Shown piece after piece: positions 11,555-44,898 of a stretch of 64,000 nucleotides of DNA. This DNA comes from Planctobacterium marinum (GTDB lineage: Bacteria > Pseudomonadota > Gammaproteobacteria > Enterobacterales > Alteromonadaceae): the NCBI RefSeq assembly GCF_036322805.1, contig NZ_AP027272.1, positions 4,808,184-4,872,183 on the forward strand, in the 5' to 3' direction. Position 1 is the stretch's first letter. Each line of letters opens with the position of its first letter. Position numbers and translations under genes: made by a program. Below the pieces are notes generated by a model. It saw only the letters and a list, made by a program, of their open reading frames with translations, searched no databases and had not been told where the DNA came from.

Positions 11555-14179
11555 TTAGCCAGTATTACGCATACCCACAGCAATACCAGTAATGGTTACC
11601 ATCATGGCTTTTTCCAGCGTTCTGTCTTCCTGAGTATCATCCAGCGCCCTGATGCGCTGTAACAGCTCCATTTGCAAATAGTGCAGCGGCTGCAAATAAT
11701 CTGCGCGAATCGACATAGACTGTTTGCCTTTTGGATCAGACTCCATGACTTCCTGTTGCCCTAACAATTTCAGCAAAAGGGCGATACTGTCGGTTAACTC
11801 AGAACGAAGTTTATCGCCAAAGTGCTGTAACTCCGCTGGCACCAGCTTGTCATCATAAGCCTTCCCCACTCGGGTGTCGGCTTTATAAAATACCATGTCC
11901 AACATAGACAAACGCGAACGGAAGAAAGGCCAACTGGCCAGCATGTCCTGTAATAGCGGCTCATTGCCTTTATCCAGAGCATTTTGCACCGCTGGCATTA
12001 CGCCCAACCATGAAGGCAATACCATCCGGGTTTGGGCCCAAGCGAAAATCCACGGAATGGCGCGTAAACTTTCAATCCCCCCAGTGGGTTTGCGTTTCGC
12101 GGGACGGCTACCCAAAGGCAACTTGCCCAGTTCTTGCTCTGGTGTGGCCACGCGGAAGTAAGGCACAAAATCCGCATCGTGGCGTACCACTTTGCGGTAA
12201 TTGTCTCTGGCGTCGGCCGCCATATCCGTGATCGCCTGACGCCACTCTGGTTTTGGCTCGGGTGGCGGTAAAATAAAAGCTTCCAGGATAGCACTGGCGT
12301 ATAAATTAAGACTGCGCTTAGCCAGCGCCGGCATACCAAACTTATAGCGAATAGTTTCACCTTGCTCGGTAACCCTGAAGCCACCGTCCAATGATCCTGG
12401 AGGCTGAGACAAGATAGCGGAATGTGCTGGCAAGCCGCCACGCCCTATCGTGCCACCACGACCGTGGAATAACGTGAGTTTGATATCGTTTTCTTGCGCT
12501 ATCGCCACTAAGGCTTCTTGCGATTCGTATTGCGCCCAACCTGCGGCAAGCGCGCCAGCATCTTTGGCAGAATCAGAATAACCAATCATCACATATTGCT
12601 GGCCTTTGATGTAACCGCGATACCAGTCAATGGCCAACAGATCACTCATTACCTTAGGCGCATTGTTCAAATCGTCCAGAGTTTCAAACAAAGGCGCTAC
12701 TGGCATGGCCCAACCAACATTCATTTCCTGCAATAACAACTGCACTGCCATCACATCAGAGGGCAAACTAGCCATGGAAATAATATAAATCCCAAAGGCC
12801 TCGCGATTGTTTTGCGCAATAACTTTACAGGTATCAATCACCTCTTTGACTTCCGCGCTGGGCTGCCAATTAGTGGGGAACAATGGGCGCTTGGAATTTA
12901 GTTCGTGTAATAAAAACGCTTGCTTGTCGGCTTCGGTCCATTGGTTATAGTCGCCGATACCCAAGTGGCGGGTTAGCTCACCAAACACATTAGCGTGACG
13001 CTCGGAGTCTTGTCGCACATCCAGGCGCAACAAATGCACGCCAAAACAATGAGCACGTCGGATGGTATCCAGCAACAAACTGTCGGCAACGTTACTCATG
13101 CCACAGGCATATAACGAGTTGTAACAGGCCATCAACGGCGCCAGAATTTCTTCATCTGACTGGATCCAGTCTTCCTGGTCTACCGGAAACCCTTCCAGGT
13201 GGCTGGCAATGCCATCACGCGTCAGGATCAGTTGATCCCACACCGGACGCAACAAGGCGCGGTAAGGCTCAAGGGCATCTTCACCGACAATACTGCGCAC
13301 ATAGTCGTCGCAATCGGTCATGGATAATTCCACAACTAAACGCTCTATGTCATCTGCAAATAATCGCGCAGCGCGCTTTCTGGCCAATAACAGAACTTTT
13401 TGAGTAACCTTAGCGGTAACATTGGGATTACCATCCCGATCGCCGCCCATCCAGCTGCTGAAATGCACTGGTGACGCATCCAATGGCAAGCTCTGACCAA
13501 ACTGGGCTTGTAGTTTGCCATCTAATTCGCGAATAAAATCAGGCACTGCTTCCCATAAAGAATTCTCGATTACCGCGAAGCCCCATTGTGCTTCATCCAC
13601 TGGCGTAGGACGCACCGCGCGTACTTCTTCCGAGTGCCACGCTTGGGTAATAAGATCAGCAATTCGCAACTCCAGTGACTTGCGCTGTACGGCACTGAGT
13701 TCATCACTGCGCATGCGTTTTACACACTGGGTTAATTCGGAGTACTTGTGAATGAAGGTGCGCCGATACACTTCTGTTGGGTGTGCAGTTAGCACCAGAT
13801 CAATGTCTAGCTTGGCGACCGTATCAGCAAACGAGCTTTGTGAGAAACCCATATCCTCTAATCGCGCTAACAGGGCTTCCATTGGATCGTCAATCTGCGC
13901 ATTGCTATTGTGTTCCTGCTCCACAATATTGGCCAGGTTCAGAAACTGGGTAAAAGCACGAGCTACCGTGAGTAATTGCTCGTTTTCCAGCTCAGAAAAA
14001 AGCGATTGCAGTTGTTCTGTCGCTTCTTGTTCACCCTGGTTGGACTTGCGACCCGCTTTACGGATTGTTTCGATGCGCTCTAGCCATGCTTCACCTAACT
14101 GGTCTTTAATGGTGGTGCCCAAGGTACTGCCTAATTGACGAACAGTGTCCCTTAGCTGATTTTCCATAGCGTCTGACAT
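11555..14179 (-). CDS. ppc: phosphoenolpyruvate carboxylase
   Basis: 874-residue enzyme that carboxylates PEP to oxaloacetate to refill the TCA cycle. The start is ATG 14179 (MSDAMENQLRDTV), preceded by GGAG. Catalytic signatures: 'VLTAHPTEVYRRT' (His of the first site), 'SSWMGGDRDGNPNVT', the glycine loop 'LFHGRGGTIGRGG', and 'GYSDSAKDAG'. The C-terminus 'TGIAVGMRNTG' is the conserved end needed in the allosteric/catalytic core. It stands alone between the shared terminator at 11507-11530 and its own upstream region. Confidence 0.97.
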   Translation of the reverse strand: MSDAMENQLRDTVRQLGSTLGTTIKDQLGEAWLERIETIRKAGRKSNQGEQEATEQLQSLFSELENEQLLTVARAFTQFLNLANIVEQEHNSNAQIDDPMEALLARLEDMGFSQSSFADTVAKLDIDLVLTAHPTEVYRRTFIHKYSELTQCVKRMRSDELSAVQRKSLELRIADLITQAWHSEEVRAVRPTPVDEAQWGFAVIENSLWEAVPDFIRELDGKLQAQFGQSLPLDASPVHFSSWMGGDRDGNPNVTAKVTQKVLLLARKRAARLFADDIERLVVELSMTDCDDYVRSIVGEDALEPYRALLRPVWDQLILTRDGIASHLEGFPVDQEDWIQSDEEILAPLMACYNSLYACGMSNVADSLLLDTIRRAHCFGVHLLRLDVRQDSERHANVFGELTRHLGIGDYNQWTEADKQAFLLHELNSKRPLFPTNWQPSAEVKEVIDTCKVIAQNNREAFGIYIISMASLPSDVMAVQLLLQEMNVGWAMPVAPLFETLDDLNNAPKVMSDLLAIDWYRGYIKGQQYVMIGYSDSAKDAGALAAGWAQYESQEALVAIAQENDIKLTLFHGRGGTIGRGGLPAHSAILSQPPGSLDGGFRVTEQGETIRYKFGMPALAKRSLNLYASAILEAFILPPPEPKPEWRQAITDMAADARDNYRKVVRHDADFVPYFRVATPEQELGKLPLGSRPAKRKPTGGIESLRAIPWIFAWAQTRMVLPSWLGVMPAVQNALDKGNEPLLQDMLASWPFFRSRLSMLDMVFYKADTRVGKAYDDKLVPAELQHFGDKLRSELTDSIALLLKLLGQQEVMESDPKGKQSMSIRADYLQPLHYLQMELLQRIRALDDTQEDRTLEKAMMVTITGIAVGMRNTG

Positions 14180-32000: not shown

Positions 32001-33878
32001 TCAATCATTGGCGATCGCAAGGTCTATTTGCGCTTCCAACACAGTCAACGGTAATGCACCGTTATCCAGTACCAGATCATGGAAGTCCCGGATATCAAAA
32101 TTGTCTCCTTGCGCCTCCCGCATCCGCTCGCGCAATTCCAGTATTTTCAGCATGCCCGTCATATAGGCGGTAGCCTGCCCGGTGTAGATGCTATATCTGG
32201 CAATATTACCCAAAGCACTGTTGTTACTTACCCCGACGTTTTCTTCAAACCAGGAAACGGCTCTTGATTGACTCCAGCCAAAGGCGTGAATGCCGGTGTC
32301 CACCACCAATCGCGCCGCTCTTAAGGCTTCAAAGTTAAGTCGGCCAATATCACCATAGATATCATTGGCATACCAGTTGTAATCACCCGCCAAACGTTCT
32401 GCATATAATCCCCAGCCTTCGATATAGCCCGTTGCCGGATAATTCCGGCGAAAATCAGGTAATGCCGTTTCCTGTGCTAACGCTATTTGCATGTGATGTC
32501 CGGGCATCGCCTCGTGATAAGCCAAGGTGGGCATAATAAAGTAAGCCTCCGGGCTGACATTCTGCGCAAAAAAAGCCCCATCTCGCGAGCCATCTAAAGA
32601 ACCTCTGACATAAAAGCCGCCCGTTGGTCCACCTACCACTCTCACTTGTTGCACCGGAAATCGGTTAAACAGTGGCATCATTCTATCTTCAGCATCACTG
32701 ATAAGCCGCTCATAAGTACTGATGATCTGACCTGTGGCAATAAAACCGCCGTCATTGGCTACGCGGCTAAATAGTTGCTGTAAGGACTCACCCGCCGAAT
32801 AACCTAATTGGTCAAACCGCTCGCGCAATTCGCTGTGAATTCGGGCGATTTCCTGCAATCCCAGCTCGTGAATTTCCAAGGCCGTTAAATTCGTAGTGGT
32901 GTGATAACGCAAGCGTTGCTGATAATAAGCCTCACCACCGGGAAACTGTCCTACACCAATCTGTTGGGGTGCGCGATTGCGTTGTGCTTGCAGAAAACTT
33001 ACAAGCTGGTTGTAAGCAGGCACAATCTCATCTCTTATTGTGGCTCTTGCGGTATCGCGAAAGCTCGCTTTTTGGGTATCGGTTAAACTGCTGATGTCAT
33101 CCAGTTTACTGCTGAAGTTGGCAAAGTAAGCTGAAGCATCAATATTGCTGACGGCATTACTGTGCACATTAATAGAGACATCTAATGTAAACTGCGGCTC
33201 AATAACCCCGTAGGCTTCCATTTCCTGTAAGTTATTGATGAGCTGTGTGAACTTATCATCTACGAAGGTCAGTCGCGTCAGATAATCCTGTACATCGGAT
33301 TCTGTCTGCAAGGGGTGCAAATCGGAGAAAAACAACTGAGTACCGCTGGGAACGCCAGTGAGAAAATAAGTGGCCTGATAGTCAAAGTAGATAAAACCCC
33401 GCATTTCAGCATTGCGCTGTGCAAGCCACAAAAGGCTATCGTAATTAACTTGTTGTGCTGTATCTAAACTGGCTCTGTCGATTAGCTGCAATCGCTCATA
33501 AAGTGCCTGCCACATGGCAATGGTGGTCACCTGATAGGGAAAATCAATAGGAGTCAGAGCTAACGTATCTAGCTGATACTGTTCTGCCAGGCCCAATCCC
33601 AAAACGCTTTCTGGATCCCTCAGTGAAAGCACTGGCCATGCCATATCCAGAATATCGTTCAAGTCCATATCCTGAATCAAATCTGCAAACTCGCTGGCTG
33701 CGATGCCTGGCTCAGGCGGAGTTGGAGCAGTGGGATTAGTAGGCGTGGTGGGTGTTGAGGGTGTACCGGGCGTATTATTTGTTGTACCGGAAGAACCGCC
33801 GCCGCAACTGGCAAGCAAACTAATCCCGATAAATACCAAGGCTGAACCCAAAATAAATGGTCTGCGCAGTAGATTCAT
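32001..33878 (-). CDS. DUF885-family lipoprotein, probable metallopeptidase-like protein
   Basis: 625 residues. Lipobox LLAS-C (Cys25), then a Thr/Pro-rich spacer (about 30-60) that would hold the domain away from the membrane. The large helical domain carries the DUF885 signature 'YHEAMPGHHMQIALAQE' (about 450-467), whose HExxxxHH layout looks like a gluzincin-type zinc site, and 'YIEGWGLYAERLAG', supplying a further Glu. Members are thought to be peptidases or amidases; no substrate is established here. Stands alone. Confidence 0.85.
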   Translation of the reverse strand: MNLLRRPFILGSALVFIGISLLASCGGGSSGTTNNTPGTPSTPTTPTNPTAPTPPEPGIAASEFADLIQDMDLNDILDMAWPVLSLRDPESVLGLGLAEQYQLDTLALTPIDFPYQVTTIAMWQALYERLQLIDRASLDTAQQVNYDSLLWLAQRNAEMRGFIYFDYQATYFLTGVPSGTQLFFSDLHPLQTESDVQDYLTRLTFVDDKFTQLINNLQEMEAYGVIEPQFTLDVSINVHSNAVSNIDASAYFANFSSKLDDISSLTDTQKASFRDTARATIRDEIVPAYNQLVSFLQAQRNRAPQQIGVGQFPGGEAYYQQRLRYHTTTNLTALEIHELGLQEIARIHSELRERFDQLGYSAGESLQQLFSRVANDGGFIATGQIISTYERLISDAEDRMMPLFNRFPVQQVRVVGGPTGGFYVRGSLDGSRDGAFFAQNVSPEAYFIMPTLAYHEAMPGHHMQIALAQETALPDFRRNYPATGYIEGWGLYAERLAGDYNWYANDIYGDIGRLNFEALRAARLVVDTGIHAFGWSQSRAVSWFEENVGVSNNSALGNIARYSIYTGQATAYMTGMLKILELRERMREAQGDNFDIRDFHDLVLDNGALPLTVLEAQIDLAIAND

Positions 33879-34551: not shown

Positions 34552-35835
34552 TTAATGCTTGTTCATATAATCCATGGTTAGGTTCGTCAGTAATTTAACC
34601 CCTAGATTCATACCTTCATCATCCACATAAAACTCTGGTGTATGGTGAGCAGGGGCTTCGCTGTCTGGTACGTCTTTGGGTTTGCCACCCACAAACAAAT
34701 ACAGGCCGGGAATTTCTTTCTGGAAGAAAGAGAAATCTTCCGCACCAGTTGTAGGTTTGCGGCTAATCACATTATCTTTACCTGCCGTTCGCACCAGGGT
34801 ATCCAGCATGTCGCCCATCAACTCAGGATCGTTATAAGTAACCGGATAGTTATAATCCAGTGGTAGCGTGACTTCTGCGGTGGCACCCATGCTTTCGGCA
34901 ATGGCTTTCACTTTACGCGGTAACGACTCATAAATATGCTCTCGCGCCGCATCGTTTAAGGTGCGAATGGTACCCACCATTTCCACTTCATTGGGAATGA
35001 TGTTAGAACGAACCCCGCCCTGGATTTTACCCACAGTGACAACAGCGCCATCTTCCACTAACTCCAGTTCGCGGCTGACAATAGTTTGCAGGCCCATAAT
35101 AATTTGGGCCGAAGTCACTACTGGATCAACACTCATCCAGGGATAAGCACCGTGTGCCTGTTTACCTTTAACCACCACTTTGAAGGGATCTACCGCGGCC
35201 ATGATGCCGCCCGCGCGATACGCCACGGTATCCACTTCCAAGCCTGCCCAGATGTGCAAACCAAAAATCACATCCACATCAGGATTTTTCAGCACACCTT
35301 CTTCCACCATCACTTCAGCACCACCGCGCTCACCGGCAGGTGCACCTTCTTCAGCAGGCTGAAAGATAAACTTCACTTTGCCTTTTAATTTATCTTTGTT
35401 TTGCGCCAATAATGTTGCTGCGCCCATCAACATGGCCATGTGGGTATCGTGCCCACAAGCATGGCTTACTGGCACATCGTTGCCGTTGTACTCACCACGG
35501 GCGGTGGACTTCCAGGGTAAATCGTTAACTTCCTGTACCGGCAGGGCATCCATATCGGCTCGAAGCCCAACTACCGGACCGGGCTTACCACTATCTAACA
35601 CAGCGACAACACCAGTAATTGCGACACCAGTTTGTACTTCAAAGCCTAGTTCCCGCATATAACTAGCAATATACTTTGCCGTTTCAAACTCGCGGTTGGA
35701 TAACTCCGGGTTTTGATGGAAATGACGACGCCATTCAACCGTTTTTGGCTCTAATTTTTCCGCCTGAATGGCGATATCTGCCGTGGCATGAACCGCAAAG
35801 ATAGCGCTAAGCGCCAGTGTGAGTTTTCTTATCAT
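34552..35835 (-). CDS. exported M20-family amidohydrolase
   Basis: 427 residues with a signal peptide (about 1-19, LALSAIFAVHATA). M20D amidohydrolase of the hippurate/IAA-amino-acid hydrolase type: 'WRRHFHQNPELSNREFETA', metal motif 'SHACGHDTHMAMLMGAA' (about 122-138), 'FIFQPAEEGAPAGERGGA', and the late 'TGAEDFSFFQKEIPGLYLFVGG' (in parts). It would split an amide bond in the periplasm. Lies 55 bases after an ATP-grasp ligase gene on the same strand, so it is probably in one transcript with it and beside the cyanophycin-like genes. A role in recycling a peptide or amide made by the ligases is inference. Confidence 0.9.
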   Translation of the reverse strand: MIRKLTLALSAIFAVHATADIAIQAEKLEPKTVEWRRHFHQNPELSNREFETAKYIASYMRELGFEVQTGVAITGVVAVLDSGKPGPVVGLRADMDALPVQEVNDLPWKSTARGEYNGNDVPVSHACGHDTHMAMLMGAATLLAQNKDKLKGKVKFIFQPAEEGAPAGERGGAEVMVEEGVLKNPDVDVIFGLHIWAGLEVDTVAYRAGGIMAAVDPFKVVVKGKQAHGAYPWMSVDPVVTSAQIIMGLQTIVSRELELVEDGAVVTVGKIQGGVRSNIIPNEVEMVGTIRTLNDAAREHIYESLPRKVKAIAESMGATAEVTLPLDYNYPVTYNDPELMGDMLDTLVRTAGKDNVISRKPTTGAEDFSFFQKEIPGLYLFVGGKPKDVPDSEAPAHHTPEFYVDDEGMNLGVKLLTNLTMDYMNKH

Positions 35836-35890
35836 TATCGTTCCTGTTGGGTTGGAATAGTTTCGCTTCGCATTGCATTGAGCCCCGATA

Positions 35891-37156
35891 CTACCCGTGT
35901 ACCCCCAACATTCTCAACCGATTTTCAATGGCAAACATCTGATCCAGGGTTTCACCAGCGATGATGCCGTAGATATGCGTCTTCAATTTTTTATCTTCGA
36001 TATACTCATTGGCAGACACAATCACAAAGTCCTTATGCTCCAGATCCCGATGTAAACGCACCATGGCCTCATCCAGACTACAATCCACCGAATAGCCAGT
36101 GGAAAACTTGGCGTACTCTTTCTTTTCTTGCTGTAAGTTGCGGCGCAAAACACACAAAGGCGTAGAACCATTAATGCGGATATTGGCATCAATCACAAAC
36201 ATTTCACCTTCGGCGTTTTCCAGTACATCTACACCTACGACGCCGAAATAACCGTGTTTGTGCAGGAATCGACTGAGTACGGCGATCTTATGTTGAAACT
36301 TTTCCATCGTATCGCTATAACGGATCACACCACCGATCATCTCTCCATCTTCGGTGACCATTTGATTAGTCGCGCCTAATAGTGTGGCTTTGCCCTCGCG
36401 ATCCACATAAAACTGGACACAGTAGTTACCCACTTCGTTGAGTACAAATTCCGATACCAATACCGTGCGCACCAGGCCCGCTTTAATATACTGACGGATA
36501 TCAATGGAGCAGAAATCCAGGTCTTCCTGGTTGCGAATAATGTAGGTGCCCTCACCCGCCAGGCCATGAGACACCTTCACCAAAAACGGATATTCATCGG
36601 GCACTTTCACCTGACTGATATCCACCTGAGTTAAATCGTAGTGAGTAAATTTGGGATAATGCACCCCCATCTCAGCCAGTGTTACCTTGCTCAACAAGCG
36701 ATAGTGTTCATCGGGGTCGATAGCGTGCTTTTCTTTTTTGAGGTGATCAAAAGGAAACAACGACAGGATCTTATCGTATTTATCTGACTCGTTCAGTTCG
36801 TTAAATATGTTTTGGTGAGGATAAACATCCAGATTGTCGTACTTAAAACCAAAATGCTCCCGCCAATAAGTTAAAAGGGGATCGGAGGGCTTTTCCATCA
36901 AAATTGCGGGTATATCATCCCCCATCACCGACAAAACCCGCCAGGGCTCCATTTGTGCCGTTTTATTGTAGGGGACTTTGCTCTCTTCAGAGTTACCATC
37001 CTGGATAAGGTACTTTTGATTATTAGGGAAATGACTCCAGCCTGCGGTACTGGGATAAGACACGTAATAGCCGTATTTGCCATCCTGAATATCATTGGCG
37101 AATAACTCAGAAAAGGAATTACCCGAAAAAAGCTTAAAGTCCTGCTCGATGCTCAT
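35891..37156 (-). CDS. ATP-grasp ligase of the cyanophycin-like cluster
   Basis: 421 residues from ATG 37156 (MSIEQDFKLFSG), with GAGGG six bases upstream; the longer TTG reading is rejected. Domain order: a pre-ATP-grasp region (1-150), lid (150-190), phosphate loop 'KVSHGLAGEGTYII' (194-207), and metal-binding strands 'GVVGVDVLENAEGEMFVIDANIRINGS' (seen as 'GVVGVDVL' and 'FVIDANIRINGS', 305-331). The N-terminal region ('GYYVSYPSTAGWSHFPNNQ') matches nothing I know. It should join a carboxylate to an amine using ATP. Divergent from the CphA2-like gene across 321 bases, upstream of the exported M20 hydrolase. It may supply a dipeptide building block; inference. Confidence 0.75.
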   Translation of the reverse strand: MSIEQDFKLFSGNSFSELFANDIQDGKYGYYVSYPSTAGWSHFPNNQKYLIQDGNSEESKVPYNKTAQMEPWRVLSVMGDDIPAILMEKPSDPLLTYWREHFGFKYDNLDVYPHQNIFNELNESDKYDKILSLFPFDHLKKEKHAIDPDEHYRLLSKVTLAEMGVHYPKFTHYDLTQVDISQVKVPDEYPFLVKVSHGLAGEGTYIIRNQEDLDFCSIDIRQYIKAGLVRTVLVSEFVLNEVGNYCVQFYVDREGKATLLGATNQMVTEDGEMIGGVIRYSDTMEKFQHKIAVLSRFLHKHGYFGVVGVDVLENAEGEMFVIDANIRINGSTPLCVLRRNLQQEKKEYAKFSTGYSVDCSLDEAMVRLHRDLEHKDFVIVSANEYIEDKKLKTHIYGIIAGETLDQMFAIENRLRMLGVHG

Positions 37157-37477
37157 GAAACCCTCTGTATAAGACAATGTGCGCTACTCCTTTTTTAGCC
37201 TAGTTCAGGAAAAAACGATTGCCACCAGACTAGGGGGTTTTTATGGCTAAATTATTTCGAATGCATAGTTATTCAACAATTTCCCCAAAATCGCTCTCAT
37301 ATCACTGAATTGCAATGATTTGCGCATAAGATTTCACGGCTTATGAATGGCTATTTAAGCGCAGAAAATTGGTAATTTTTGCTTTATTGCTATGCTTAAA
37401 GACATTTGATAGCTTGAACCAGACAGGTTCATATTTGCTCAATCCAATACTCAGCCAACACGCTATAGGACAACCTC
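37157..37477. promoter_or_regulatory. divergent control region of the cyanophycin-like cluster
   Basis: 321 bases without a gene. For the plus strand, TTGGTA (37369-37374), 16 bases, TATGCT (37391-37396) make a plausible sigma-70 promoter. Just after the expected start lies an inverted repeat TGAACC-AGACA-GGTTCA (37415-37431) that could be an operator or leader hairpin. AGGA seven bases before the CphA2-like ATG is its ribosome-binding site. No clear minus-strand promoter was picked out. Confidence 0.4.
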
Positions 37478-39448
37478 ATGACTGACTTCGTGGCAGAACA
37501 AACTTCTCGAACAAATGCAAAAGACTCAGATGCATTTGATGTATTCAATTTACGTCACTATGTCGGGCCCAACCCGGATTTGTCCTGCGAAGCACTGGCT
37601 TTTGATTTTGCCTTTACCGGACACCCTAAACCTGCTCCATTGAACGACATCCATTCGGCGGTGGCAGAGCGTTTACCAGAACTGGCCAAGGTAGAGTGTG
37701 AAAACTACGCACAGTTATTTGGTCATACTGTGTCTGTGGTTAACCGCCTGGATCTCAACCTGCACATGGACAAATGGGAAGTACAGGAAAAAGAACACGG
37801 TGCTCGTATCGCCTTTCAGGTGATCCACAAAACCACGTCCTGGAAAGTTGTCTATTTTGTCTGGGATTGGTTTGAATATATCTGCGACCCGGATAACAAC
37901 GAATTTGATTACGATGCCCAATTTGCGGAATTGCAGGAGTCCTTCAATCGTTCGGTATTTGGTGGCCCTACTTCCTACAGCCTGCTTAAAGCCGCCGCCA
38001 AAAAACACGTCCCCGTCACCTATTTATGGGACGAAGGCCTGTTTCAATACGGTTATGGCAAAAGCATGATCCGCGGTATCGCTACTACATTTGATGTAGA
38101 CAGCCACGTCGACTCTGACTTCACCTGTCGCAAAGACGATTGCAAAGCCTTTCTGGCGGAATACGGCTTCCCGGTACCCGAAGGCGAAGTGGTATATGAA
38201 CTAGAAGAAGCCATTGAAGTTGCCGAAGATATTGGTTACCCGGTGGTGTGTAAACCGGTAGTGGGTCACAAAGGTATTGGCGTTACGGCCAATATTGAAA
38301 ACGAAGATCAGCTGCGCAAAGCCTTTATTAATGCCGTTGCCGCGGTACCAGAAGGCGAACCACAATCCATTATTGTAGAAACCTTCGTTACCGGCAACGA
38401 CCATCGTATTTTATGCGTAGATGGCGAATTTGTGGCCGCCCTTAAACGGGAAGCGGCCTATGTGATTGGCGATGGTGAGTCCACCATCATGGAGCTAATT
38501 AATATCGAAAACGGCAAAGAAATCCGCGCCGATACCGCCACCTCACCGCTGGGTAAAATCCTGACAGATGATGTGATGGATAATACCTTAAGTGATGCAG
38601 GCCTAACCCGTGACTCAGTATTAGAGCGGGGCGAAAAAGTCCATCTGCGCAAAGTGGCCAACCTGTCGTTGGGCGGCGTGAGTGAAGACGTGACAGATAT
38701 CGTGCACCCGGAAATCATTGCCATGAGTCGTGCTATAGCGCAGCACTTTAAGCTCACGGTATTCGCCCTGGATGTGATCACCGATGATATCGCCAACGAC
38801 TGGAAACCAGTAAAAGGGCAAAAACGCGCCAACTTCGGTATCATCGAGATCAACGCGGCACCGGGCATTTATATGCACTTAAAACCCGCCTACGGTCGCT
38901 CCATCGATGTGCCTACTCGCATCATCGAAACCTTCTTTGATGAAAGCCTGGATGCCCGTATTCCTATCCTGACCTTCAATAAACTCAGCAAACCTGGCAT
39001 GAAGCGCATTATCGATTACATCATGCACCACGATATCTGTCGTTACCCGGCAGGCGTGTGTACTGACGGTATGTTTCTGAAAAAACACGAGTTTCCAGTG
39101 AACCCTGATTACAACGCCAACATGCGCAACGTGCTGAGAAATCCCAGAGTAGAAATGTTGCTGGCAGAAATGCCATTAGCGGTCTACGAAACGGAAGGAA
39201 TGTATTACAATAGTTCAGATTTATTGGTGCTCGAAGATCCCAACGAGACAGAAATGATTCTGGCAGAAGATATGGAACCCGGCGCCATAGTGATGATCCG
39301 TAAAGGCAACGATGTAGAAATTCGCCGCGGCGATGCTGAGCCTGAAGCCATGCAGGTAGAATTCGAGGATGAATTCTTTTCCCTGGTACTACACGAAATC
39401 AAAGCCCACTTTGGCAAAAAAATCATCTTACAACCGGCAACCCTTTAA
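37478..39448 (+). CDS. cyanophycin-synthetase-like protein with truncated, inactive Mur-ligase domain (CphA2-like)
   Basis: 656 residues. Residues 24-160 match the cyanophycin synthetase N domain ('LRHYVGPNPD'). Residues about 185-490 are its ATP-grasp domain: 'FQYGYGKSMIRGIATT', 'KPVVGHKGIGVTANI', 'ETFVTGNDHRILCVDG', 'YVIGDGESTIMELI', 'LRKVANLSLGGVSEDVTD', 'IIEINAAPGIYMHLKP'. From 495 the Mur-ligase domain begins ('RIPILTF'), but where CphA1 has TGTNGKTT this protein reads 'FNKLSKPGMKR'. 'CTDGMFL' and 'NVLRNPRVEMLLAE' still align, and the protein stops about 160 residues in. So only the ATP-grasp site can work. This is the state of CphA2, which polymerises beta-Asp-Arg dipeptides. The monomer here is unknown. 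Followed by a cyanophycinase-like gene. Confidence 0.85.
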   Translation: MTDFVAEQTSRTNAKDSDAFDVFNLRHYVGPNPDLSCEALAFDFAFTGHPKPAPLNDIHSAVAERLPELAKVECENYAQLFGHTVSVVNRLDLNLHMDKWEVQEKEHGARIAFQVIHKTTSWKVVYFVWDWFEYICDPDNNEFDYDAQFAELQESFNRSVFGGPTSYSLLKAAAKKHVPVTYLWDEGLFQYGYGKSMIRGIATTFDVDSHVDSDFTCRKDDCKAFLAEYGFPVPEGEVVYELEEAIEVAEDIGYPVVCKPVVGHKGIGVTANIENEDQLRKAFINAVAAVPEGEPQSIIVETFVTGNDHRILCVDGEFVAALKREAAYVIGDGESTIMELINIENGKEIRADTATSPLGKILTDDVMDNTLSDAGLTRDSVLERGEKVHLRKVANLSLGGVSEDVTDIVHPEIIAMSRAIAQHFKLTVFALDVITDDIANDWKPVKGQKRANFGIIEINAAPGIYMHLKPAYGRSIDVPTRIIETFFDESLDARIPILTFNKLSKPGMKRIIDYIMHHDICRYPAGVCTDGMFLKKHEFPVNPDYNANMRNVLRNPRVEMLLAEMPLAVYETEGMYYNSSDLLVLEDPNETEMILAEDMEPGAIVMIRKGNDVEIRRGDAEPEAMQVEFEDEFFSLVLHEIKAHFGKKIILQPATL

Positions 39449-39498
39449 GGACCGCCAGATCCTTAGCAGTATAGGTAGAAAAATTGGTGTTTAATGTA

Positions 39499-40326
39499 AT
39501 GCATAATAACAAAGGTACTTTAACCCTAATCGGAGGCGCAGAAGATAGAAACAGCAACAGTGGCGTGCTTCGAAATCTGGTAGACAAAACCAAAGCCCGT
39601 TATGTGGCTGTGGTACCTACCGCCTCCATGTATGGCTACGAACTGGGCGATGAATACAAAGACACCTTTCGTCGCCTGGGTGTAGAAAAAATCGAAATTC
39701 TGGATATTAAAGAACGCCGCGATACCGAAAACGAGCGTTTTCTGGAAATCGCCAAAGAGGCCGATCTGATCTTCTTTACTGGTGGCGACCAGGTAAAACT
39801 GGCCCATGTGTTCTTACATACAGAATTATTAAAGATCATCAAAAACCGTCACTTCTTATCGGGCTTGCACCTGGCAGGTACCAGCGCTGGCGCCATGGTA
39901 ATGAGCGACCCGCTGATTTACGAAGGTGACGGCAAAGACTTCCAAAAAGGTGCGGTATTTTTCGAGCCGGGTTTTGGTATCACCGCCAGTACCACAGTCG
40001 ACACTCACTTTATGGAGCGCGGCCGTATCCCGCGTATTTGTGCCTTTCTGGCATCGGGTTACAGCAAACGCGGCATCGGGGTAGGTGAAGACACCGCCGC
40101 CTTCATTACCCCAGATGACAAACTGGAAGTGTTTGGTTCCGGCATCGTTGTGATGTTCAACGCCGACAAAATGCGTTACTCCAACTTCCACAACATCAAA
40201 GAAGACGAGCTCATCGATATGGATAATGTGGCCATGTCTTTCCTGGTGCACGGCTCCCGCTTTGATATGAGCAAATGGGCGCAAATCAAACCTTCGAAAC
40301 GCAAGAAGATTATTGCGGCTTCTTAA
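39499..40326 (+). CDS. cyanophycinase-like serine peptidase (S51-type)
   Basis: 275 residues from ATG 39499 (MHNNKGTLTLIGG); TTG 39484 is an alternative with AGGT upstream. Features of CphB: 'LIGGAEDRNS', 'FFTGGDQVKLA' (Gln98), nucleophile 'GTSAGAMVMSD' (Ser129), 'TVDTHFMERGRIPRI' (Asp168, His170, Arg174, Arg176, Arg179) and 'GVGEDTAAFI'. The spacing matches Synechocystis CphB residues Q101, S132, D172, H174, R178, R180 and R183 as I remember them. The residue matching Gln173 is Thr169, so substrate fit may differ. No signal peptide, so it acts in the cytoplasm. It lies 50 bases after the CphA2-like gene, surely the same operon. Confidence 0.88.
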   Translation: MHNNKGTLTLIGGAEDRNSNSGVLRNLVDKTKARYVAVVPTASMYGYELGDEYKDTFRRLGVEKIEILDIKERRDTENERFLEIAKEADLIFFTGGDQVKLAHVFLHTELLKIIKNRHFLSGLHLAGTSAGAMVMSDPLIYEGDGKDFQKGAVFFEPGFGITASTTVDTHFMERGRIPRICAFLASGYSKRGIGVGEDTAAFITPDDKLEVFGSGIVVMFNADKMRYSNFHNIKEDELIDMDNVAMSFLVHGSRFDMSKWAQIKPSKRKKIIAAS

Positions 40327-43056: not shown

Positions 43057-43126
43057 CGCCATTTGAGTATTTTCTTTCACCTGGCTACACTGATTTTCAC
43101 AGTTAAAGACAAGTCAGTTCGGTGTG

Positions 43127-44029
43127 ATGGAAGAAAAGCAAATAAAACAATTTCAGGAAGATGGCTATTGTTTAATAGAAAACGTGCTATCAGAGGATCT
43201 ATTGCAAAGGTGGCGAACTCTATCCGAGGAGTTGGAATGCAAAGCGGTAAAGAGCCATAAAGAACAAAGCCATTTGCACGGTGCTGTCGTTGTAGAGGAT
43301 AAGCCAGGGCCACGTCTTATGCGCTTTGACGACATATTTGCACAAGATCCAGATTTGATATTGGAAACCCTGGCCCTACCCGCAGTTTTAGAGATGTCGA
43401 AAAGCTTGTGCGGTAGAGGCAGTGTACCAGTACAAATGGACGTTCTTTTCAAACAACAACACCCACACCCGGTTATCAAATGGCATCAAGGCGCTCAACA
43501 CAGTCGTCACTACCCGTATCTCAACGTAGGAATTTACCTTGATGATGCTCCAGCGGGTGATGGCTGTTTGCGTTATTTACCCGGAACGCAACACGAACTT
43601 CAAGACATTGACGCCTTGTCTAAAGAACATGGTTGGGAAATACCAGGGGTAATTGAACAACCAGCGAAAGCGGGAGATATGCTGGTACAAGATATGATGA
43701 TATTACACGGCTCGCAACCGAAACGCTCTCCGGGTGTAAGAAGAACAATCTACATTGAGTTGCGACCGTGGCAATCTATTGTTGAATCAAAATCACAATC
43801 TGAACATTGGGCAGAACTCAGAAAACAATGGATGAGTTTGGTCCTGCAAAAAGATGCCGCCGCAATTTGGCCACAACTATGGCTGGAAGATTATCCTGAT
43901 GCGCCAGAACCACAGCAATTGATTAACGAAATATTAGAGCGAAGGGAACCACCTCAACCCGCTGTGTGGGGAATTTTTCCGGTAGAGTCAAAAAATTATC
44001 CGGTTCCAGATGATATGCTGGAGTGGTAG
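43127..44029 (+). CDS. PhyH-fold Fe(II)/2-oxoglutarate enzyme with H-x-G motif, halogenase candidate
   Basis: 300 residues from ATG 43127 (GTG 43124 also possible). Phytanoyl-CoA-dioxygenase fold: 'FQEDGYCLIENVLSEDLL' at the start, 'NVGIYLDDAPAGDGCLRYLPGTQ' (in parts), 'GDMLVQDMMILHGSQPKRSP' and 'RRTIYIELRP'. The iron triad should be H-x-D...H. Here the first part reads W-H120-Q-G122, so the carboxylate ligand is Gly; the second His is H194 and the 2-oxoglutarate Arg is R205/206. H-x-G/A is the known change in Fe(II)/2-oxoglutarate halogenases, where chloride or bromide takes the open site. Substrate unknown. The adjacent decayed paralogue has the same H-Q-G. Confidence 0.8.
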   Translation: MEEKQIKQFQEDGYCLIENVLSEDLLQRWRTLSEELECKAVKSHKEQSHLHGAVVVEDKPGPRLMRFDDIFAQDPDLILETLALPAVLEMSKSLCGRGSVPVQMDVLFKQQHPHPVIKWHQGAQHSRHYPYLNVGIYLDDAPAGDGCLRYLPGTQHELQDIDALSKEHGWEIPGVIEQPAKAGDMLVQDMMILHGSQPKRSPGVRRTIYIELRPWQSIVESKSQSEHWAELRKQWMSLVLQKDAAAIWPQLWLEDYPDAPEPQQLINEILERREPPQPAVWGIFPVESKNYPVPDDMLEW

Positions 44030-44071: not shown

Positions 44072-44898
44072 GTGGTTAAAAAAGCCATTCTTTCTACTTT
44101 GTTGGCCCGCGAGGATAACATGGCCAAAGCCATGGAGACTGCTGCTTTAGAGCAATCAGCAGAGTTGGATATGCCACAAGTGTCACTGGATAGCATTGAG
44201 TTCCCCTCAGTGGTATTTAGAATTGATCACATTTACCGTAGTCATTCAGCAATAGTCAATGAGCTATTGAGTTCGCCCGTGGTTTACAGGTCAATACTCG
44301 CGCTTGCAGGTAATGATGTTATCCCGCTTGGGGTTGATATTCTTTATAAGAGTTCTTATGACGCTTCCGCAGTTCCATGGCATCAAGGCTCTATTCACAA
44401 TGGCTCAGTGCCTTGTTTTGCCATGAGCGTTTAGTAGGATGACACTGATGAAGATGATGGCTGTCTGTGCTATCTACCAGGCTCCCATAAACACAAACAA
44501 GATGTTCATCAGCTAGCAGCTCAACACGGTTGGAATATTCCTCAGTGCCAACAAGTGCCCGTTAATGTAGGGGATGTGCTGTTTCACGATGTGGTGACAC
44601 TGCATGGCTCAACACTTAAAGTCAGCTCGGGTTCCTGACGCACCATTTATATCGTGTTTCGACTAGCAAGCGAAATACTGGCCACGGGTTCACAAAGCGA
44701 AAACTGGGTAAATTTGAGAGAGTGTTGGATGGTTCTGCTGCATGCCAAGGCAAAAAAACCAACGATTCAAATAGTGCAGATGACTCCCATATTGAAGAAT
44801 TGCCCTCAGAGTTCTACCAACAGTTATATGCTAAAAGGGAAAATCCTACCCCCTCTAATTGGGCGTTTCCCCCAGTGAAGCGAGAAGTTTATCCTTAA
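44072..44898 (+). pseudogene. decayed paralogue of the PhyH-fold H-x-G enzyme
   Basis: Reads from a GTG near 44072 in one frame with good similarity to the preceding gene: 'AVPWHQGSIHNG', 'DDGCLCYLPGSHKHKQDVHQ', 'GDVLFHDVVTLHGST', 'RTIYIVFRLAS'. It is interrupted by tandem TAG TAG (44432-44437) where the intact copy has Tyr-Leu, by TGA (44636-44638) where it has Arg, and by a frame change near the A7 run at 44752-44758. The final part ('EFYQQLYAKRENPTPSNWAF') continues in another frame to TAA 44896-44898. Each stop is one base from the expected codon. It is a pseudogene, still easy to read, hence not very old. Confidence 0.85.

What the first reader, a model, noticed from the sequence alone, without database searches (positions are those of the whole stretch)
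34552..40326. Four-gene divergent cluster that may make and degrade a cyanophycin-like isopeptide
A CphA2-like ligase and a cyanophycinase-like hydrolase are in one operon. A second ATP-grasp ligase and an exported M20 amidohydrolase read the other way from a shared 321-base control region. Cyanophycin systems normally need CphA1; none is visible here. CphA2 enzymes need a ready-made dipeptide, and the second ATP-grasp enzyme is a natural candidate to make it. The product could be cyanophycin-like or a new amino-acid polymer or dipeptide. Presence of the genes is seen; the joint pathway is inference.
Basis: partly seen in the sequence, partly recalled or inferred. Interest (0 to 1): 0.82.

Follow-up and report, generated by a model that had tools for sequence, protein, structure and literature searches.

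The report
Dipeptide ligase tied to cyanophycin polymerase
An Alteromonadaceae-type bacterium that already has a full gene set for the nitrogen-storage polymer cyanophycin carries a second set, in which a cyanobacteria-like polymerase and a cyanophycin-degrading enzyme sit beside an ATP-using enzyme that likely makes the polymerase's two-amino-acid building block; in every checked genome that has the ATP-using enzyme the polymerase is present too, which would point to a so far undescribed way of making such polymers.

The parts
34552..35835 (-). M20-family amidohydrolase, 427 aa, N-terminus looks like a signal peptide; read here as a resident neighbour
   Evidence: PF01546 137.7 bits, TIGR01891 355 bits; relatives 70-89% in many Alteromonadaceae; N-terminus printed, signal peptide judged by eye
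35891..37156 (-). AG2: ATP-grasp amino-acid ligase-like enzyme, 421 aa, candidate beta-aspartyl dipeptide ligase
37157..37477 (.). 321-base divergent spacer
   Evidence: aligned with G296 and G297
37385..37416 (+). Conserved stretch TATTGCTATGCTT-n2-A-n-ACATTTG-n-TAGC-n-TG upstream of cphA2, possible promoter or operator
   Evidence: kept in all three genus genomes in the alignment; function not tested
37478..39448 (+). CphA2-type cyanophycin polymerase, 656 aa
   Evidence: 8fxh 695.7 bits, 7ta5 604.3 bits, CphA1 chains 199-216 bits; no Mur domain in Pfam; G-domain residues
39484..40326 (+). Cyanophycinase (S51), 280 aa; 35 bases after cphA2
   Evidence: TIGR02069 191.4 bits, cut-off 126.6; alignment to solved cyanophycinases

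Best explanation
This is a second cyanophycin-type gene module in which a CphA2-type polymerase and a cyanophycinase are divergently paired with an ATP-grasp enzyme (AG2) that likely joins aspartate through its side chain to another amino acid and so would supply CphA2 with fresh dipeptide. In the known scheme CphA2 re-polymerises beta-Asp-Arg released from cyanophycin; AG2 would add a route from free amino acids that does not pass through CphA1. Shown: gene identities by sequence, the fold class of AG2's predicted model, CphA2 in every AG2 genome checked, adjacency of AG2 to isoaspartyl peptidase genes in many cyanobacteria, and a complete CphA1 system elsewhere in this genome. Inferred: that AG2 is a dipeptide ligase, that its bond is a beta-aspartyl bond, and that the product goes to CphA2. 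Open: the second amino acid. Arg is the default, but 48 of 49 AG2 genomes checked also have a CphA1-type gene, so another partner is a real possibility.
Against: No activity is known for AG2. It fails the LdmS model's cut-off (82.6 against 475). CphA2 often lacks AG2: 20 of 33 cyanobacteria and sister genome G296. Isoaspartyl peptidase adjacency is only 2 of 13 in the separate sample, 1 of 11 if the two genomes already in the first set are left out. In 77 of 80 loci AG2 is not seen near CphA2, in some because the contig is short. AG2 and CphA2 both favour large-genome cyanobacterial lineages, so shared ancestry inflates the counts. With CphA1 present a beta-Asp-Arg maker would be redundant. 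One AG2 (G321) has two stops inside.
Confidence: 0.5

Rival explanations
1. CphA2 and cyanophycinase only recycle beta-Asp-Arg, as described for cyanobacteria, and AG2 makes an unrelated dipeptide; AG2 and CphA2 are found together because both belong to the same lineages or were acquired together.
For: CphA2 works without AG2 in 20 of 33 cyanobacterial genomes and in G296; CphA1 is present in this genome and in 48 of 49 AG2 genomes; in cyanobacteria AG2 is rarely near CphA2.
Against: AG2 is absent from all 72 sampled cyanobacteria with only CphA1-type genes and from large-genome ones among them; the tie recurs in a gammaproteobacterium, a SAR324-group genome and cyanobacteria; adjacency to isoaspartyl peptidase or CphA2 genes recurs in different orders.
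Confidence: 0.27
2. AG2 uses beta-Asp-Arg (or another isoaspartyl dipeptide) as a substrate and joins it to an amino acid or a second dipeptide, making a primer or cap for CphA2, or scavenging dipeptides.
For: Ties to CphA2 and isoaspartyl peptidase fit a dipeptide consumer as well as a producer; short primers matter for CphA1 (PMC9262961, passages) and CphA2-type sequences lack the primer-making N-domain motif.
Against: The nearest solved relative is, by recall, a ligase of single amino acids; no direct evidence for dipeptide binding.
Confidence: 0.13
3. All four genes form one pathway, with the exported M20 enzyme splitting the dipeptide or polymer outside the cytoplasm.
For: M20 is on the same strand as AG2, 55 bases downstream, in the window and in L117; equal contig lengths suggest M20 on 7 of 8 long CphA2 contigs.
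Against: M20 relatives at 70-89% occur in many Alteromonadaceae genera, while AG2 and CphA2 were found in 1 of 247 genomes of the order; M20 keeps its place without AG2 in G296; a signal peptide would put it apart from three enzymes without one.
Confidence: 0.08

Closest known systems
CphA2 of cyanobacteria (8fxh/8fxi and 7ta5; that these are CphA2 entries is recalled)
   Same: Length, domain layout, about 50% identity to the Stanieria protein, loss of Arg458 and of the N-domain HxxEH motif, pairing with cyanophycinase
   Different: Not in a cyanobacterium; member of a separate clade of 22 in the tree; beside AG2
LdmS / SAOUHSC_02373, staphylococcal L-Asp-L-Met ligase (that the two names are one protein is recalled; 7r8p, 7r8q)
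   Different: 19% identity over the fold; AG2 is far below the LdmS model cut-off; AG2 is tied to CphA2
Canonical cphA1-cphB-isoaspartyl dipeptidase clusters (PMC10206079)
   Same: Polymerase and cyanophycinase side by side; isoaspartyl peptidase beside AG2 in many cyanobacteria
   Different: Polymerase is CphA2 and an ATP-grasp ligase is added; the canonical kind exists separately in this genome (L002)

Membership tests
CphA2 | Sequence closer to CphA2 than to CphA1 | tested here: met
   696 and 604 bits against 199-216 bits
CphA2 | No working Mur-ligase half (about 630-660 aa) | tested here: met
   656 aa; no Mur domain in Pfam; alignment ends where CphA1's M domain goes on
CphA2 | No N-domain HxxEH metallopeptidase motif | tested here: met
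   aligned columns read Q, G, H in the window, H, E, H in the genome's CphA1
CphA2 | Polymerises beta-Asp-Arg | not testable with these tools
   needs an assay
Cyanophycinase (CphB) | Passes the curated cyanophycinase model | tested here: met
   TIGR02069 191.4 bits, cut-off 126.6
Cyanophycinase (CphB) | Catalytic Ser, His, Glu and the Arg-rich substrate loop (positions recalled) | tested here: met
   GTSAG, H, E and three Arg kept; the Gln before the His is Thr
LdmS | Passes the curated LdmS model | tested here: not met
   82.6 bits, cut-off 475
ATP-grasp amino-acid/peptide ligases | Fold nearest to amino-acid or peptide ligases | tested here: met
ATP-grasp amino-acid/peptide ligases | Makes a dipeptide from free amino acids | not testable with these tools
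   needs an assay
Canonical CphA1 system in the same genome | CphA1, cyanophycinase and isoaspartyl dipeptidase genes | tested here: met
   L002: CphA1 1148 bits (cut-off 850), cyanophycinase 269.7 (126.6), TIGR01975 397.9 (331)

The most novel reading that the evidence does not exclude
AG2 founds an unrecognised enzyme family, beta-aspartyl dipeptide synthetases, that with CphA2 forms a two-enzyme, CphA1-independent route from free amino acids to cyanophycin or to a new branched poly-aspartate whose side chain is not arginine, with cyanophycinase and isoaspartyl peptidase as the undoing steps.
Probability: 0.4. Interest if true: 0.82.

Novelty: new variant of a known kind. Interest (0 to 1): 0.62.

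Why it matters
CphA2 is described as an enzyme that polymerises beta-Asp-Arg recovered from degraded cyanophycin, and as cyanobacterial (PMC9262961, PMC10206079, passages). A dedicated dipeptide maker would turn it into a polymerase working from free amino acids, could explain why many genomes keep both CphA1 and CphA2, and would give a two-enzyme tool for defined isopeptide polymers. The test is small: one enzyme of about 420 residues, ATP, aspartate and a panel of amino acids. A named candidate is WP_012599657.1 of Gloeothece citriformis PCC 7424, annotated as hypothetical, next to an isoaspartyl peptidase gene on plasmid pP742401.

Tried and rejected
Rejected: 'no CphA1'. Set aside as pathway member: M20. 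The sigma-70 scan found 7 sites (9.3 expected) and the terminator scan 8 (6.2 expected), no clear excess. A plasmid search with the window's CphA2 (E limit 1e-60) found two records, both annotated cphA at 35% identity. A plasmid search with AG2 found three records, of which I looked at one. A viral-contig scan with AG2 confirmed none of 8 pattern matches. Literature: ten searches listed no paper that I recognised by title or abstract start as describing an ATP-grasp dipeptide maker for CphA2 or CphA2 outside cyanobacteria; the library holds only open-licence papers. Papers: PMC10206079 passages and part 1 of 5 of the text; PMC9262961, PMC9427784 and PMC13338154 passages only; Klemke 2016 and the CphA2 structure paper of 2022 seen only as references; the staphylococcal ligase paper (PMC9486568) is not held, so its Asp-binding residues could not be compared. 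The contig coincidences rest on equal contig lengths, not on fetched DNA; a shared length of 5362 bases between a CphA2 and an AG2 cluster was set aside as possible chance. Not looked at or dropped: 27 of 107 confirmed places were not returned; genomes of 30 of the 80 loci were not asked for and 1 of the 50 asked (L055) is not held; one search scored only the candidates sharing most words and the protein lists show 120 rows at most. No tree-aware test of the co-occurrence was run.

Full report
What is there. The window is the last 64 kb of a single-contig genome of 4.87 Mb. The four frames are real. Kinship: genus-mate G297 carries the cluster on a contig of 87,478 bases, the same length as the contig of L008, titled 'Alteromonadaceae bacterium isolate MAG4'. 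The source is therefore taken to be an Alteromonadaceae-type gammaproteobacterium.

CphA2 and cyanophycinase. The 656-residue protein at 37478-39448 matches two solved chains, 8fxh and 7ta5, at 696 and 604 bits and CphA1 chains at 199-216 bits. That 8fxh and 7ta5 are CphA2 is recalled; the listing names them 'RimK domain-containing protein ATP-grasp' and 'Glutathione synthase'. Identity to the Stanieria protein P0067 is 50%. Of the CphA1 G-domain residues named in PMC9427784 (passages), located here by motif in the genome's own CphA1, the window keeps Lys220, Lys261, Arg309, Arg323, Asn394, Ser396, Asp431, Glu450 and Gly456; Glu215 is Asp, Arg458 is Tyr as in Stanieria, and the column of His267 holds Lys in the window and in 12 of 13 other CphA2-type rows (Glu in one), with a His one place before. 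The downstream protein passes the cyanophycinase model and keeps the catalytic positions, with Gln to Thr just before the His (which residues are catalytic is recalled). In the tree the window lies in a clade of 22 (support 0.995) beside a clade of 101 (0.97) that holds the named cyanobacterial proteins; one member of the 22 is named as alphaproteobacterial. The papers seen call CphA2 cyanobacterial.

The genome has CphA1 too. L002 holds CphA1 (1148 bits, cut-off 850), a Mur-only protein of 564 residues, cyanophycinase (269.7 bits) and IadA (397.9 bits, cut-off 331) in a row. No PF01112 isoaspartyl peptidase gene was found in the genome.

Who has AG2. A scan of the species-genome collection returned 80 of 107 confirmed places: one Alteromonadaceae, one SAR324, 78 titled as cyanobacteria (two of the 80 loci, L038 and L084, are of one strain). 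For 50 of the 80 the genomes were asked for; 49 are held, and 49 of 49 have a CphA2 match: 48 at 693 bits or more (G274 in two frames) and SAR324 at 465 bits, 39% identity; 48 of 49 also have a CphA1-type match, SAR324 being the exception. A sample of 292 genomes from the phylum of G260 has CphA2 in 33 (666 bits or more) and AG2 in 13, all 13 inside the 33 (list check). G260 was the chosen centre and G259 was also in the first set, so 11 are new handles; one genome can bear two handles, so some overlap is possible. None of the 72 genomes with only a lower, CphA1-type match has AG2. Among genomes of 5 Mb or more (rounded sizes read) it is 12 of 28 against 0 of 29. In 52 genomes of the SAR324 group AG2 is in one, the only one with CphA2; eight have CphA1-type matches only. 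In the window's order each of AG2 and true CphA2 is in 1 of 247 sampled genomes, the window's own; the other 11 matches are CphA1 or weaker. In the genus AG2 is in 2 of 3 genomes. Fisher values ignore shared ancestry.

What lies beside AG2. A same-strand gene of one family, of which one member was scanned (PF01112, 279.5 bits), lies next to AG2 in 41 of 80 loci: upstream in 36 (from an overlap of 22 to a gap of 423 bases) and downstream in 5. In the sample of 13 it is there in 2, one of which (G259) was already in the first set. Gloeothece citriformis PCC 7424 has AG2 followed by 'isoaspartyl peptidase/L-asparaginase family protein' on plasmid pP742401 (PF01112 282 bits; AG2 48% identical to the window's). 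PMC10206079 describes IaaA, the plant-type asparaginase, as an enzyme that splits beta-Asp dipeptides. In G407 AG2 follows two tandem CphA2 genes on the same strand. In Nostoc loci L033 and L035 cyanophycinase is about 4.5 kb and CphA2 about 6 kb from AG2; in L035 the CphA2 frame is broken. In the other 76 cyanobacterial loci and in SAR324 no CphA2 is seen in the fetched flank, which is short in some.

AG2 is an extra, not a core part. Genus-mate G296 keeps M20, cphA2 and cphB (87, 91 and 82% identity) with no AG2 between them. From equal contig lengths, 5 of 8 long contigs with close CphA2 relatives also carry AG2 and 7 of 8 carry M20. In the cyanobacterial sample 20 of 33 CphA2 genomes lack AG2. 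This one-way pattern is what an added supplier of CphA2's substrate would give; a passenger of the same lineages could give it too.

M20. It belongs to a broad amidohydrolase family; its N-terminus looks like a signal peptide by eye. Relatives at 70-89% are in many Alteromonadaceae genera. I treat it as a resident neighbour.

Spacer. The cphA2 side of the spacer has a block kept in all three genus genomes, 37385-37416 in the window; its role is not known.

Judgement. Proposed mechanism: AG2 makes a beta-aspartyl dipeptide, CphA2 polymerises it, cyanophycinase releases it again. The last two steps rest on family membership; the first is inferred.

Noticed in passing
L107:6449-10949 (SAR324 genome G256): A split cyanophycin synthetase: cyanophycinase, a CphA2-like protein of 636 aa, then a 510-aa protein with a CphA1 N domain (PF18921, 142 bits) and a Mur-ligase middle domain (PF08245, 33.7 bits); no whole CphA1 match in that genome.
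   Followed up: partly
L002:5285-11993: The genome's main cph cluster includes a 564-aa Mur-ligase-only protein next to CphA1.
   Followed up: partly
tree; P0014-P0019, P0022, P0042: A clade of CphA2-type proteins apart from the cyanobacterial one, mostly from metagenomes, one named as alphaproteobacterial.
   Followed up: partly
L005, L006, L007 (G000:C1 about 2299 kb, 294 kb, 2870 kb): Three longer open frames (622, 615, 482 aa) with weaker cyanophycinase matches, below the model's cut-off.
   Followed up: no
L122:7961-11911 and 12088-13476: Tandem CphA2 genes before AG2 in a cyanobacterium of 3.5 Mb, with a DcuC-type carrier (PF03606, 364.5 bits) divergent beside them.
   Followed up: partly
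window 32001-33878: DUF885 protein gene next to the cluster; the nucleotide comparison with sister genome G296 shows no match here.
   Followed up: no
window 43124-44029 and 44072-44434: A phytanoyl-CoA dioxygenase-type gene (PF05721, 78.8 bits) followed by a short frame of 120 residues on the same strand that was not scanned.
   Followed up: no
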